Assembly: GCA_018436095.1 (NCBI GenBank)
Contig: JAHDMJ010000011.1
Span: 62,001-126,000 of the forward strand
Direction: 5' to 3'
Source of the DNA: Clostridia bacterium
GTDB taxonomy: Bacteria; Bacillota; Peptococcia; DRI-13; UBA5745
DNA: 64,000 bases
The notes under the pieces are model-generated. The model saw only the letters and a list, made by a program, of their open reading frames with translations. It did not search any database and was not told the DNA's origin. Shown piece by piece: positions 1,847-59,470 of this stretch (the stretch's first letter is position 1; each line of letters starts with the position of its first letter). Position numbers and translations under genes: made by a program.

Positions 1847-2120
1847 GAGGGTACTGAAAAAGTCGTACAAGCTGACCATCGTAAAGCTGAAATGTACAAA
1901 ATTTGAGGTTTTGTGGCTGTTGCTTCTTTGGAATAGTAGATTCAAACTATGCCTAACACTAAATATAGGGAGAAATCAGTGTTCAGTAGCGTAAAACTTG
2001 AAATTTTCAGCAGTTAGCTATGGCAAATCCACATAAAACCTCATTTTTTGTACACGCAGCTGGATGGGAAGCGGCTTTTTCAGTGCCCTCGACAAACCTG
2101 CAAATTTGTGCAGTTAGCCA
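1847..2120. repeat. Intergenic modular inverted-repeat element R1 (subtype A)
   Basis: Fills most of the gap between the divergent dnaX and the gene at 2284. Imperfect terminal inverted repeats of 19 bp lie at 1847-1865 (GAGGGTACTGAAAAAGTCG) and 2072-2090 (CGGCTTTTTCAGTGCCCTC). Inside are a forward unit (1893-1916, TGTACAAAATTTGAGG...) and its inverted copy (2029-2054). Just outside the right end is a further reverse unit (2091-2117, ACAAACCTGCA...). Bases 1957-2001 are identical over 45 nt to 13679-13723 in R2. No credible gene lies inside. Confidence 0.85.
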
Positions 2121-13263: not shown

Positions 13264-13585
13264 AAAGCGTTTCTTTTCCCCGAAAGATATTGATAGTACT
13301 GAGGGGTGAAACCTTTTTTTACTTAGATGGTCTAAATATTTTTTAGGATATTTCCAGTATACTTATAGATGTTTCATTATACAAACCCCGAGGCAAGTGT
13401 TAGCAAACAATTTCTCTTAATCTCAATATACGCAACATATACGGTCGTAGTCGGCACTGACCCCAGGATACCACTTTCCGCCATTGCTCAACTGATTGAT
13501 CACTGTACTTAGTGTATGGATCGATAGATTGACACTGTTCCGGGGAGGCCGCCCACTTTAAACTTGCATTTTTGGATAAACGGCT
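13264..13585. other. Gene-poor intergenic stretch
   Basis: About 320 bases, AT-rich at first, with no convincing ORF, RNA or terminator. A fragment near 13558-13578 (AAACTTGCATTTTTGG) resembles a reverse unit of the repeat family and may be a decayed copy. Confidence 0.4.
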
Positions 13586-13840
13586 GGAGCATGCTGACTG
13601 TCATAAAACTGAAATGTACAAAATTTGAGGTTTTATGGATGTTGTTCCTTTAGAATAGTAGATTTAAACTATACCTAGCACTAAATATAGGGAGAAATCA
13701 GTGTTCAGTAGCGTAAAACTTGATATTTTGATTGGTTAGCCAATGAAACAGCCCTAAAAACTCAAATTTTGTACAAAAGGCTGGGACCCGGGCGACTTTT
13801 TCAGTACCCTCTGACAAATCTGCATTTTTGCATAGTTGGG
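13586..13840. repeat. Intergenic modular inverted-repeat element R2 (subtype A)
   Basis: Second copy of the R1 type. Forward unit 13615-13638 (TGTACAAAATTTGAGG...), conserved core, inverted unit 13757-13775, right terminal repeat 13792-13811 (GCGACTTTTTCAGTACCCTC), then a flanking reverse unit to 13840. The left terminal repeat seen in R1 is not recognisable, so this copy is degraded there. It abuts R3. Confidence 0.82.
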
Positions 13841-13862
13841 TGCGGACAACGACAAACTGAGT

Positions 13863-14200
13863 CCGCCGAAAAAGTCGTAGTCCGTATAGTGGCTAAAATC
13901 CGATTCACTGTTGCCAACTGCTCAAAAATCGAGGTTGTGTGATGGCAAGCAGGGGATTTCACCTATTTTCCGGGTCCAGATGCACAAAAATCGAGGTTGT
14001 GTGACGGATTATGGCAGTTCTTCGTGATCTAAGCCAATTCGAAGGAAATAGTGCAACACAACTTCGATTTTTGTGCAGTTAGCCTCTGCTTTTAGCCTAA
14101 ATTTGATGCCCGCTGTGACACAACTTCGATTTTTGTGCACCTCGCCCGATTTACCGCCGACTTTTTCAGTGCCCTCCGACAAACTTGCATTTTTAATCAG
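13863..14200. repeat. Intergenic modular inverted-repeat element R3 (subtype B)
   Basis: Four 22-bp units: forward at 13919-13940 and 13981-14002 (TGCACAAAAATCGAGGTTGT core), reverse at 14056-14077 and 14118-14139. Both pairs have a 62-bp period, so the whole locus is a large dyad. Ends are 13863-13880 and 14155-14176 (...CTTTTTCAGTGCCCTC). A flanking reverse unit runs to 14200. Bases 14041-14108 are identical over 68 nt to 57139-57206 in R4. Confidence 0.88.
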
Positions 14201-16756: not shown

Positions 16757-17386
16757 TTATTTCACTTTAACCAGATAGCCGGCTACCCAGCCTATGGTAC
16801 CGTCGCTGAGCTGCACCTGGTACCAGTCTTTATCCACTTTGGTAATGGTGAAGCTGTCGCTGGGGCTCAATTTTTTCTTGATGGTGGAAGAGGTGGAAGC
16901 GGATTCTCTCAAGTTGACCACGTCGGCAGTAACGGCTCCCGTCTTGCCGATATTGGCCTGGGACACTGCTGTACCGCTGCTGCTGCCTCCGGTACCTGTA
17001 CCACTGCCCGTAGAACCGGTGCCTGAAGTGCCGGAGCCGGAACCGCCAGTGCCTGTCCCTGTACCTGTTCCGGTACCGCCGGTGCCGGTACCCGTGCCCG
17101 TCCCTGTGCCGCCGGTACCGGTGGTGCCGACAACGCCGCCGTTAAGCAGGGACAACTCATTTTCCAGGCTTTGAATCTTGGCTTCCAAGCTGCTGATCCT
17201 GGTATCCATGGCTTGCACCTTCTGCTCAATAGAGCCGTCGGCATAGCTTTGGGTCACTAAAGGATCCTCCTTGGAACCGGGCTCCTTCGTATCTCCGCCC
17301 AAAACGCCGGTACCGTAGAGAAAACCCACGCCTACAGAAACAATTATCCCTAAAAGTACAAACACTTTCCAATCTATTCTTCTCAT
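16757..17386 (-). CDS. Membrane-anchored coiled-coil/SH3b protein
   Basis: 209 residues in four parts: one N-terminal membrane segment (about residues 7-28), a short coiled coil (about 55-78, ISSLEAKIQSLENELSLL), a low-complexity Gly/Thr/Ser linker (about 80-135), and a C-terminal bacterial SH3 domain (VVNLRESASTSS... to WVAGYLVKVK) expected to bind peptidoglycan. It is probably anchored in the membrane and reaches the wall. The linker plus SH3b end closely resembles that of the protein at 57326-59470. It follows the WecA-like gene by 54 bases on the same strand. Confidence 0.8.
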   Translation of the reverse strand: MRRIDWKVFVLLGIIVSVGVGFLYGTGVLGGDTKEPGSKEDPLVTQSYADGSIEQKVQAMDTRISSLEAKIQSLENELSLLNGGVVGTTGTGGTGTGTGTGTGGTGTGTGTGTGGSGSGTSGTGSTGSGTGTGGSSSGTAVSQANIGKTGAVTADVVNLRESASTSSTIKKKLSPSDSFTITKVDKDWYQVQLSDGTIGWVAGYLVKVK

Positions 17387-26802: not shown

Positions 26803-26848
26803 GGCATAGTCTATGAGGCTGCCAAGCAGCCTATGCAGAAAAATCTCA

Positions 26849-26944
26849 AGAGAGTTTGCTTTGCTTCTAGAGACTCTTTTGAGAGTCTGCTATGGTTCTA
26901 AAGACTCTCAAGAGAGTCTGCTATGGCTCTAGAGACTCTCTTGG
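26849..26944. repeat. Three tandem 31-bp repeats across the dusB stop codon
   Basis: GAGT(C/T)TGCT(A/T)TG..TCTA.AGACTCT recurs with 31-bp period at 26852, 26883 and 26914. AGACTCTC-AA-GAGAGTCT (26902-26919) is a perfect dyad between copies. The last copy encodes the final dusB residues and its TAG. Could fold in RNA between dusB and the next gene. Confidence 0.75.
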
Positions 26945-34110: not shown

Positions 34111-34390
34111 TGGTGAAGATTTTACGTTTGTACGCAATGAGCCAGGGCGGAGTGTACAAAATTTACGGTTGTAGGTAATTAGCCGGAGCGAGTTGTACAA
34201 ATTTTTCGGTTATAGGTAACATGCAAATGGAAAATTGGGTCAAAAGGGTTAAAATGCTCTCGATTTGGCCTGGGATTGGCCTAAATTGCCCAAAATCTTT
34301 TTGGAGAGGAGCTGCAATTCACCCACAAGTGGAAATTTTGTACAAGCTAAGTTCTGAAACTGCATACGAGTGGAGATTTTATACAAAAAT
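34111..34390. repeat. Intergenic modular inverted-repeat element R6 (subtype C), inside the folate operon
   Basis: Fills the folB-folK gap. Forward units at 34153-34175 and 34194-34216 (TGTACAAA-TTT-CGGTT pattern, 41-bp period); reverse units at 34327-34344 and 34367-34386 (40-bp period). A decayed fifth unit may lie near 34116-34133. The core (ATTTGGCCTGGGATTGGCCT, 34263-34282, and on) resembles the core of R7. Bases 34391-34599 hold nothing I can call. Confidence 0.75.
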
Positions 34391-48534: not shown

Positions 48535-48696
48535 TATTGCAGACATAATGTTTCAGAGGAAGTCTAAACAAGCAGTAAAAATTAAACCATACATCAAGAA
48601 AAGCCGCCAATGATCAGATTTGTCATGCCAAGGTTGACTCGGAATTCGCTTTTGTCCGGTCTGCAGGCTTTGTCCTCTGGTGGTGCGGACGTTTTC

Positions 48697-48929
48697 TGTG
48701 CAAAAATGCAGGTTTGTATCCAGTAAGGGCGCCAGTTGAGCAAAAATGCAGGTTTGTAGACACCCCCTAGAGTTATGGAGGCCCCCAAAACAGGTGGAAA
48801 GATATGACTCGACTATATCTAGTGCCCTGGCAGAAACAAGTTCGCTACCAAACTGTAAAAAATGTTTAAGCTTTCAAACATTCCTGCTGATAGGGTCTCT
48901 AGACGAAGACAAACTTGCAATTTTGCACA
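48697..48929. repeat. Intergenic modular inverted-repeat element R5 (subtype D)
   Basis: Forward units 48697-48718 and 48737-48758 (TG.GCAAAAATGCAGGTTT core, 40-bp period), and a reverse unit 48909-48929 (ACAAACTTGCAATTTTGCAC). The same unit type flanks the right ends of R1-R4. Bases 48535-48696 and 48930-49098 contain nothing else clear. Confidence 0.7.
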
Positions 48930-49098
48930 GAGGGGGGACCTCAATAAGCCAACCACCCCCTGCCGGTGGGCATGCCCATTTCTTTCCATTAGATTAATAG
49001 ACAATCATAAAAAAAGTTAGCAAAAGAGAGCCTGCCTCTAGAAGGGAAGCTCTCTTTTATTTAAATTAAATCCTGATATTCTCTTGGGAATCAGTACC

Positions 49099-56885: not shown

Positions 56886-56956
56886 AATATATGCACCCGG
56901 CATGATGGACAGCGGCCCACGGTGCCGATATTTGTTCAATTCAGCAGCTAATCGGA

Positions 56957-57303
56957 AGCCGCTGAAAAAGCCGCAGTCCGTATAGTGGCTAAAATCGGGT
57001 TCACTGTTGCCAACTGCACAAAAATCGAGGTTGTGTGACGGCAGGCAGAGGATTTTACCGTTTTTTCGGGTTCAGATGCACAAAAATCGAGGTTGTGTGA
57101 CGGATTAGAGGGCAGTTTTTCGTAATCTGAGCCAATTTGAAGGAAATAGTGCAACACAACTTCGATTTTTGTGCAGTTAGCCTCTGCTTTTAGCCTAAAT
57201 TTGATGTCCGCTGCGACACAACTTCGATTTTTGTGCACCTCGCCCGATTTGCCGCAACTTTTTCAGTGCCCTCATACAAACCTGCAATTTTGAGCAGTTA
57301 GCC
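56957..57303. repeat. Intergenic modular inverted-repeat element R4 (subtype B)
   Basis: Same plan as R3. Forward units 57015-57036 and 57077-57098; reverse units 57154-57175 and 57216-57237; both pairs with 62-bp period. Ends: left GCTGAAAAAGCCGC (56960-56973), right ...CTTTTTCAGTGCCCTC to 57273; flanking reverse unit 57274-57303. Confidence 0.88.

Positions 57304-57325: not shown

Positions 57326-59470
<2,145 letters not shown>

What the first reader, a model, noticed from the sequence alone, without database searches (positions are those of the whole stretch)
13863..14200. Exact 62-bp periodicity and four-unit dyad in R3, repeated in R4
In R3 the units start at 13919, 13981, 14056 and 14118; in R4 at 57015, 57077, 57154 and 57216. 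Each has +62, then a turn (75 or 77), then 62. Two 22-mers forward and two inverted give nested pairing of about 220 nt. Near-integral helical spacing (62 bp is about six turns) suits either cooperative protein binding on one DNA face or a long RNA hairpin.
Basis: seen in the sequence. Interest (0 to 1): 0.65.

Follow-up and report, generated by a model that had tools for sequence, protein, structure and literature searches.

The report
Helically phased repeats inside mini transposons
The two repeats are small non-coding transposons whose internal 22-bp units sit whole turns of the DNA helix apart, and the same rule holds across most related elements in this genus, so the units most likely bind a protein that loops the DNA rather than folding as RNA.

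Summary
R3 has units at 13919, 13981, 14056 and 14118 (+62, +75, +62); R4 at 57015, 57077, 57154 and 57216 (+62, +77, +62).

R3 (13859-14176) and R4 (56955-57273) are about 319-bp MITEs (miniature non-coding transposons) of IS1182 type. The ends are GAGGGCACTGAAAAAGTCG, and R3 is flanked by an exact 9-bp duplication, CGACAAACT. A complete IS1182 element in a same-order genome has the same ends and a 9-bp duplication.

The units belong to a larger family: 508 sites in 1.26 Mb sampled from this genome (1 in the reversed control), found otherwise only in one congener. Unit spacings are quantised in helical turns. Same-strand spacings are 40-42 or 61-62 bp. Forward-to-inverted distances follow 98 + n x 10.45 bp across 29 loose families, while distances between back-to-back elements do not. 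The congener's copy of R3 keeps 62/62, but its loop is one turn shorter.

No compensatory base changes were found, so the RNA-hairpin reading is not supported. Best reading: phased protein-binding (probably transposase) sites on short DNA that must loop. The protein is unknown. Tandem decamers explain some 10-bp steps, but families without them are still phased.

The parts
13850..13858 (.). left 9-bp target-site duplication of R3, CGACAAACT
   Evidence: 9/9 match to the right copy
13859..13877 (+). left terminal inverted repeat of R3, GAGTCCGCCGAAAAAGTCG (IS1182 type)
13919..13940 (+). unit 1 of R3 (22-mer, forward)
13981..14002 (+). unit 2 of R3 (22-mer, forward), +62
14056..14077 (-). unit 3 of R3 (inverted)
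14118..14139 (-). unit 4 of R3 (inverted), +62
14158..14176 (-). right terminal inverted repeat of R3, GAGGGCACTGAAAAAGTCG read on the minus strand
14177..14185 (.). right 9-bp target-site duplication of R3, CGACAAACT; also the edge of a pre-existing unit (14179-14199, minus)
56955..56973 (+). left terminal inverted repeat of R4
57015..57036 (+). unit 1 of R4
57077..57098 (+). unit 2 of R4, +62
57154..57175 (-). unit 3 of R4 (inverted)
57216..57237 (-). unit 4 of R4 (inverted), +62
57255..57273 (-). right terminal inverted repeat of R4 (no duplication left around R4)
1847..2090 (+). R1: 244-bp IS1182-type MITE of a second subfamily, with units at 1893 (+), 2012 (-) and 2054 (-), 42 bp between the last two
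13590..13811 (+). R2: left-truncated relative of R1 (82% over 181 nt) with right TIR 13793-13811 and units at 13615 (+), 13734 (-) and 13775 (-)
34153..34386 (+). four-unit array of another unit subtype (TGTACAAAATTTACGGTTGTA): forward at 34153 and 34194 (+41), inverted ends near 34344 and 34386
   Evidence: only 34153 passes the weight-matrix threshold, the other three read by eye
48697..48929 (+). two forward units (48697, 48737, +40) and one inverted (48929) inside a larger genome repeat

Best explanation
R3 and R4 are non-autonomous IS1182-type transposons (MITEs) that carry inside them an array of two forward and two inverted copies of a 22-bp protein-binding site. The units belong to a genus-specific superfamily of sites (CAAAAWT..ARGTT core) found mostly in forward-then-inverted arrays. 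Shown: TIRs, target-site duplications, quantised spacing, conservation of units over spacers, and no RNA covariation. Inferred: a DNA-binding protein, most likely the transposase of a vanished or unassembled element, occupies the units on one face of the helix and brings the forward and inverted sets together by looping 80-190 bp of duplex. Because such short DNA resists twisting, only lengths of whole helical turns work, which leaves the 10.4-bp quantisation. In R3 and R4 the array is a passenger or relic that an IS1182 transposase has copied around.
For: IS1182 MITE: exact 9-bp duplications in R3 (also fetched as L047) and in L034, L039, L049, L050, L016 and L106. A full IS1182 element in same-order genome G012 (L171 1389-3118) has ends GAGGCCACTGAAAAAGT and duplication GGATGAACC. 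Transposases beside the same end in G048, G137 and G012 score above the IS1182 cut-off (NF033551). Phasing: forward-to-inverted distances of 146 loops peak at 10.4 bp (R=89.5); 29 family representatives R=14.9, none of 2000 jittered sets as high; 44/55/77 stricter clusters R=21.9/27.9/42.3, null maximum 12.5. Control back-to-back distances show none, R(10.4)=0.11, n=36. Same-strand spacings inside elements: 40-42 (148), 49-53 (7), 61-62 (50) of about 215; those crossing an IS1182 end are irregular. Species test: the congener copy keeps 62/62 with a loop 11 bp shorter and diverged spacers. Units vary 2.3 times less than the rest, the best of 226 mask shifts. Transposon-end nature: 26 single-pair elements, nearly all in the congener, start TG or TA, end CA, measure 130-131, 140-142, 150-152 or 161-162 bp and sit in AAA/TTT with a 2-3 bp duplication (p 0.0006 and 0.009).
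Against: No protein is identified: no autonomous element with unit ends was found in the sampled third of the genome, and no IstB/IS21-type match is convincing. The TG/CA boundary with a duplication is clear only for the single-pair elements, not for R3 or R4; other arrays show no duplication. Part of the 10-bp stepping in the largest family comes from tandem decamers CTAAATAYAG in the loop, so slippage contributes, although about 20 families without a tandem signal remain phased (R=9.6, p about 3e-4). The loop families are defined by sequence similarity and may share ancestry too old to detect. The family-reference loop is 98, while R3 itself has 96, slightly out of phase.
Confidence: 0.7

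Rival explanations
1. The units are operators of a host regulator or nucleoid protein that loops or bridges DNA; the transposons merely spread them.
For: The same phasing would be expected; the unit has a partial dyad (CAAA..TTTG). Arrays are numerous and lie mostly outside genes.
Against: Arrays avoid divergent gaps where promoters lie: 6 divergent, 24 convergent and 41 tandem of 71 occupied gaps, against 57/67/199 of all gaps. Same-genus genomes G001-G003 lack the units. In the congener the units form the ends of elements with a short duplication.
Confidence: 0.2
2. The array is a long RNA hairpin acting in transcription termination or processing.
For: Strong predicted folds, z -5.1 and -7.7; a bias to convergent gaps.
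Against: No covariation beyond shuffles, covariation term -0.31, no Rfam family, a B-DNA period in loop lengths, and weaker unit pairing in the congener copy although 62-bp spacing is kept.
Confidence: 0.06
3. The quantised lengths are by-products of replication slippage on decamer repeats and of common ancestry; no looping constraint exists.
For: Tandem CTAAATAYAG decamers, 2/3/4 copies, match the 130/140/150-bp classes in the congener; tandem duplication clearly makes the 40-41-bp arrays.
Against: Families with no tandem signal keep the phase. The R3 family lost one turn in the congener in a loop without obvious decamers. The 41- and 62-bp same-strand spacings are also whole turns.
Confidence: 0.15

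Closest known systems
IS1182-family insertion sequences and MITEs derived from them
   Same: Terminal repeat GAGGGCACTGAAAAAGTCG against GAGGCCACTGAAAAAGT of a complete IS1182, 9-bp duplication in both, no coding capacity.
   Different: The MITE interior is filled by phased 22-bp arrays unrelated to IS1182; no intact IS1182 transposase in this genome, only a broken relic.
Paramecium internal eliminated sequences (PMC3464196)
   Same: Population of short elements whose length distribution has a helical period (about 10.2 bp), interpreted as DNA looping in a transpososome-like complex.
   Different: Eukaryotic and excised in development; here bacterial, multi-unit, and the quantised quantity is the spacing of repeated internal sites.
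IS21, Tn7/CAST and Mu ends with several direct-repeat transposase sites
   Same: TG/CA ends in the congener family and two or more direct repeats per end; in VchCAST, changing site spacing alters transposition with a period of about 10 bp (PMC10201428); IS21 needs two repeats per end (PMC10122671).
   Different: No IstA/IstB or TnsB-like gene found here, the duplication is 2-3 bp rather than 5, elements are only 130-320 bp.
IS50 short-element length experiment (Goryshin 1994, as cited in PMC3464196)
   Same: Transposition of short elements depends on length with the DNA helical repeat (read only as cited; the paper itself was not held).
   Different: Laboratory constructs; here a natural genome-wide series.

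Membership tests
IS1182-type MITE (R3, R4) | terminal inverted repeats matching an IS1182 element | tested here: met
   GAGGGCACTGAAAAAGTCG against GAGGCCACTGAAAAAGT at the ends of L171 and beside transposases in G048, G137 and G012
IS1182-type MITE (R3, R4) | target-site duplication of the same length as the parent element | tested here: met
   9 bp exact in R3 and six other copies; 9 bp in L171. R4 has none left
IS1182-type MITE (R3, R4) | no coding capacity, many copies | tested here: met
   318-320 bp, no ORF of 100 aa inside, at least 25 near-complete copies
IS1182-type MITE (R3, R4) | autonomous partner in the same genome | tested here: not met
   no match to the intact transposase; one frame-broken IS1182 relic at G000:C4:168970
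IS21 / Tn7 / Mu type ends (unit arrays) | TG...CA termini | tested here: inconclusive
   clear for most of 26 single-pair elements; R3 and R4 arrays lie inside another transposon
IS21 / Tn7 / Mu type ends (unit arrays) | cognate transposase and ATPase genes | tested here: not met
   PF01695 (IstB) gives only three weak partial hits, and the single rve protein is IS3 family
IS21 / Tn7 / Mu type ends (unit arrays) | duplication of 4-8 bp | tested here: not met
   2-3 bp AAA/TTT
IS3 family | ends of the genome's IS3 element match the units | tested here: not met
   L089 shows no unit at its ends
REP/RAYT elements | Y1 (RAYT) transposase in the genome | tested here: not met
   no PF01797 in G000, one in G004
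structured RNA | covariation or an Rfam match | tested here: not met

The most novel reading that the evidence does not exclude
A bacterial genus holds hundreds of copies of one binding site in arrays whose spacings are nearly all whole helical turns, maintained through sequence divergence and between species: a natural helical-twist experiment pointing to an undescribed transposase (or looping protein) that needs several phased sites per end on DNA as short as about 80 bp.
Probability: 0.45. Interest if true: 0.75.

Novelty: new variant of a known kind. Interest (0 to 1): 0.6.

Why it matters
Helical phase-dependence of transposition and looping is known from constructed plasmids (IS50, CAST libraries, lac and ara loops) and, in nature, from ciliate internal eliminated sequences. 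Here a bacterial MITE population records the same rule in its sequence, with two orders of spacing (within each arm and across the loop) and two species to compare. It gives a quantitative read-out of which geometries were viable and makes the identity of the binding protein directly testable. It also shows how multi-unit binding sites are built by tandem duplication and then spread inside another family's transposon.

Tried and rejected
1) RNA hairpin: folds strongly but without covariation; my first structure string was off by one column and was corrected. 2) IS21/Tn7 partner: family searches found no convincing genes. 3) IS3 element L089 as the owner of the units: its ends do not match. 4) RAYT/REP: no Y1 transposase in this genome. 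5) Autonomous copies with the IS1182-type ends, or with unit ends: none in the held DNA. 6) Duplications around all arrays pooled: none; only the single-pair elements showed them. 7) Decamer slippage as the sole cause of the quantisation: a first classifier was too permissive (discarded) and was replaced by a shuffle-based one; slippage explains part only. 8) Phage, plasmid, viral and other-genome collections: no relatives except one contig of the congener. 9) Literature search for the terminal repeat sequence gave one unrelated paper; no paper on helically quantised bacterial MITEs was found. 10) The whole genome was not available as a file, so unit statistics rest on 1.26 Mb of stretches.

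Full report
1. The observation. Units in R3 start at 13919, 13981, 14056 and 14118, and in R4 at 57015, 57077, 57154 and 57216, exactly as written. The spacing is 62, then 75 or 77, then 62. Units 1 and 2 read forward, 3 and 4 inverted. The 22-mer occurs 148 times in the genome at up to two mismatches, and the reversed pattern never does.

2. What R3 and R4 are. A search of the host genome (a 3.7-Mb, 38-contig assembly) with R3 gave at least 25 near-complete copies. Aligned copies share sharp ends, GAGG(G/C)C(A/G)CTGAAAAAGTCG, in inverted orientation. R3 spans 13859-14176 between two exact copies of CGACAAACT. Six other elements have exact 9-bp duplications and four more have 8 of 9. The size classes are about 190, 233-244 and 318-327 bp. 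The same end sequence occurs in other genomes of the phylum, where it lies beside a transposase that scores above the cut-off of the IS1182 model (325-365 bits against 270). One complete element in a same-order genome (L171 1389-3118) has ends GGGGCCACTGAAAAAGT / GAGGCCACTGAAAAAGT and the 9-bp duplication GGATGAACC. R3 and R4 are therefore IS1182-type MITEs. The host has no intact transposase of this kind, only a frame-broken IS1182 relic.

3. The units form a superfamily. A weight matrix built from seed variants finds 508 sites in 1.26 Mb of host DNA (1 in the reversed sequence) and 73 in 0.4 Mb of a congener (0 reversed). The sampled stretches were chosen near known hits, so the density is not representative. 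The conserved core is TGNNCAAAAWTNSARGTT, often preceded by GCTAAC. Subtypes differ in the variable positions. Sites mostly occur as one to four forward units followed by one to four inverted units. Only one congener among 100 relatives searched has matches to R3, and a scan of the public genome collection returned a single contig, Clostridia bacterium SM1-B15.1, with the same length as the congener's contig C65. Phage, plasmid and viral collections have none.

4. Helical quantisation. Forward-to-inverted distances fall at about 77, 87-88, 97-98, 110, 118-121, 130-131, 139-140, 148-152, 159-161, 171, 181-183 and 191-193. The strongest period is 10.4 bp: R=89.5 for all 146 loops and 14.9 for one representative of each of 29 loose families, with no jittered set as high. 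Stricter clusterings into 44, 55 and 77 groups give R=21.9, 27.9 and 42.3, against a null maximum of 12.5. The same test on back-to-back distances between neighbouring elements gives R=0.11. Same-strand spacings within elements are 40-42 (148), 49-53 (7) and 61-62 (50) of about 215; spacings that cross an IS1182 end are irregular apart from a 58-60 peak, which fits insertion of these MITEs at the outer edge of a pre-existing unit: R3's own duplication overlaps the start of the unit at 14199.

5. Cross-species test. The congener copy (L070 1314-1622) has units at 1373, 1435, 1501-1522 and 1563-1584. Spacings of 62 and 62 are kept, the loop distance is 87 instead of 98 (one turn), and the first spacer and the loop have largely changed in sequence. 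Within 24 host copies, nucleotide diversity is 0.057 in units and 0.132 elsewhere; the unit mask is the best of 226 circular shifts, and gaps fall in 1 of 88 unit columns against 13 of 138 others. First spacings of 61 and 62 both occur.

6. Against the RNA reading. The structure pairs 96.5% of cells, but 381 of 500 shuffles do as well, and a single pair shows changes on both sides. Alifold's covariation term is -0.31. No Rfam family matches. Power is limited because units vary little.

7. A caveat found late. Many loops in the largest family carry tandem decamers CTAAATAYAG. In the congener, two, three or four of them correspond to element lengths near 130, 140 and 150 bp, so slippage is one source of 10-bp steps. 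Families whose loops show no tandem signal (about 20) are still phased (R=9.6, p about 3e-4), and so are the 50 signal-free loops of the largest family. The decamers are themselves phased A/T tracts and may curve the loop (inference).

8. Are the units transposon ends? 26 single-pair elements, nearly all in the congener, run from TG (rarely TA) to CA, have unrelated flanks, and are bordered by AAA or TTT on both sides more often than chance (2 bp p=0.0006, 3 bp p=0.009). This fits units as transposase-binding terminal repeats. Other arrays have no such duplication, and no autonomous element was found. Arrays avoid divergent gaps (6 of 71 occupied gaps against 57 of 323 gaps overall) and favour convergent ones (24 against 67), as neutral or mildly harmful insertions would.

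9. Mechanism. Most likely a protein binds the units on one face of the DNA and pairs forward with inverted sets by looping 80-190 bp. On such short duplex, twisting is costly, so only whole-turn lengths work. Precedents: Paramecium internal eliminated sequences (PMC3464196, which cites IS50 length experiments), CAST binding-site spacing (PMC10201428) and IS21 ends with two repeats (PMC10122671). Shown: MITE identity, quantised spacing, unit conservation. Inferred: the protein, the loop, and that the array is a passenger in the IS1182-type MITE.

Noticed in passing
window 13578-14199: A chain of ten units with nested elements (R2, a single unit, R3, a single unit), consistent with IS1182-type MITEs landing at the outer edge of existing units (duplications such as CGACAAACT overlap ACAAACYTGC).
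   Followed up: partly
window 48560-48950: A larger genome repeat (copies seen near L002, L021, L023, L182, L200) carries a ++- unit array with a 192-193 bp forward-to-inverted distance; its full boundaries were not determined.
   Followed up: partly
window 34153-34386: Four-unit array of a divergent subtype (GGTTGTA type), spacing about 41 in both arms by eye; relatives of this subtype at L090 6797 and L108 19538.
   Followed up: partly
window 26839-26943: 31-bp tandem repeat with AGAGACTCTC motifs, three copies.
   Followed up: no
window 57529-57661: Imperfect 12-bp coding repeats (related copies at 17047 and 17080) inside the minus-strand ORF 57326-59470, probably a protein linker.
   Followed up: no
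L232 1402-2498 (G000:C4:168970): Frame-broken IS1182 transposase, the only DDE_Tnp_1 match in the host genome; no MITE-type ends were found around it at up to 4 mismatches.
   Followed up: yes
L021-L025, L028: The same four-unit core without the IS1182 ends; L022-L025 share a right flank (GCGGCCGGGCACAACCCAATCC), with tRNA-like sequences just upstream of the core in L022, L025 and L028.
   Followed up: partly
loops of L212-L231: Tandem decamers CTAAATAYAG between the inverted units, possible curved DNA.
   Followed up: partly
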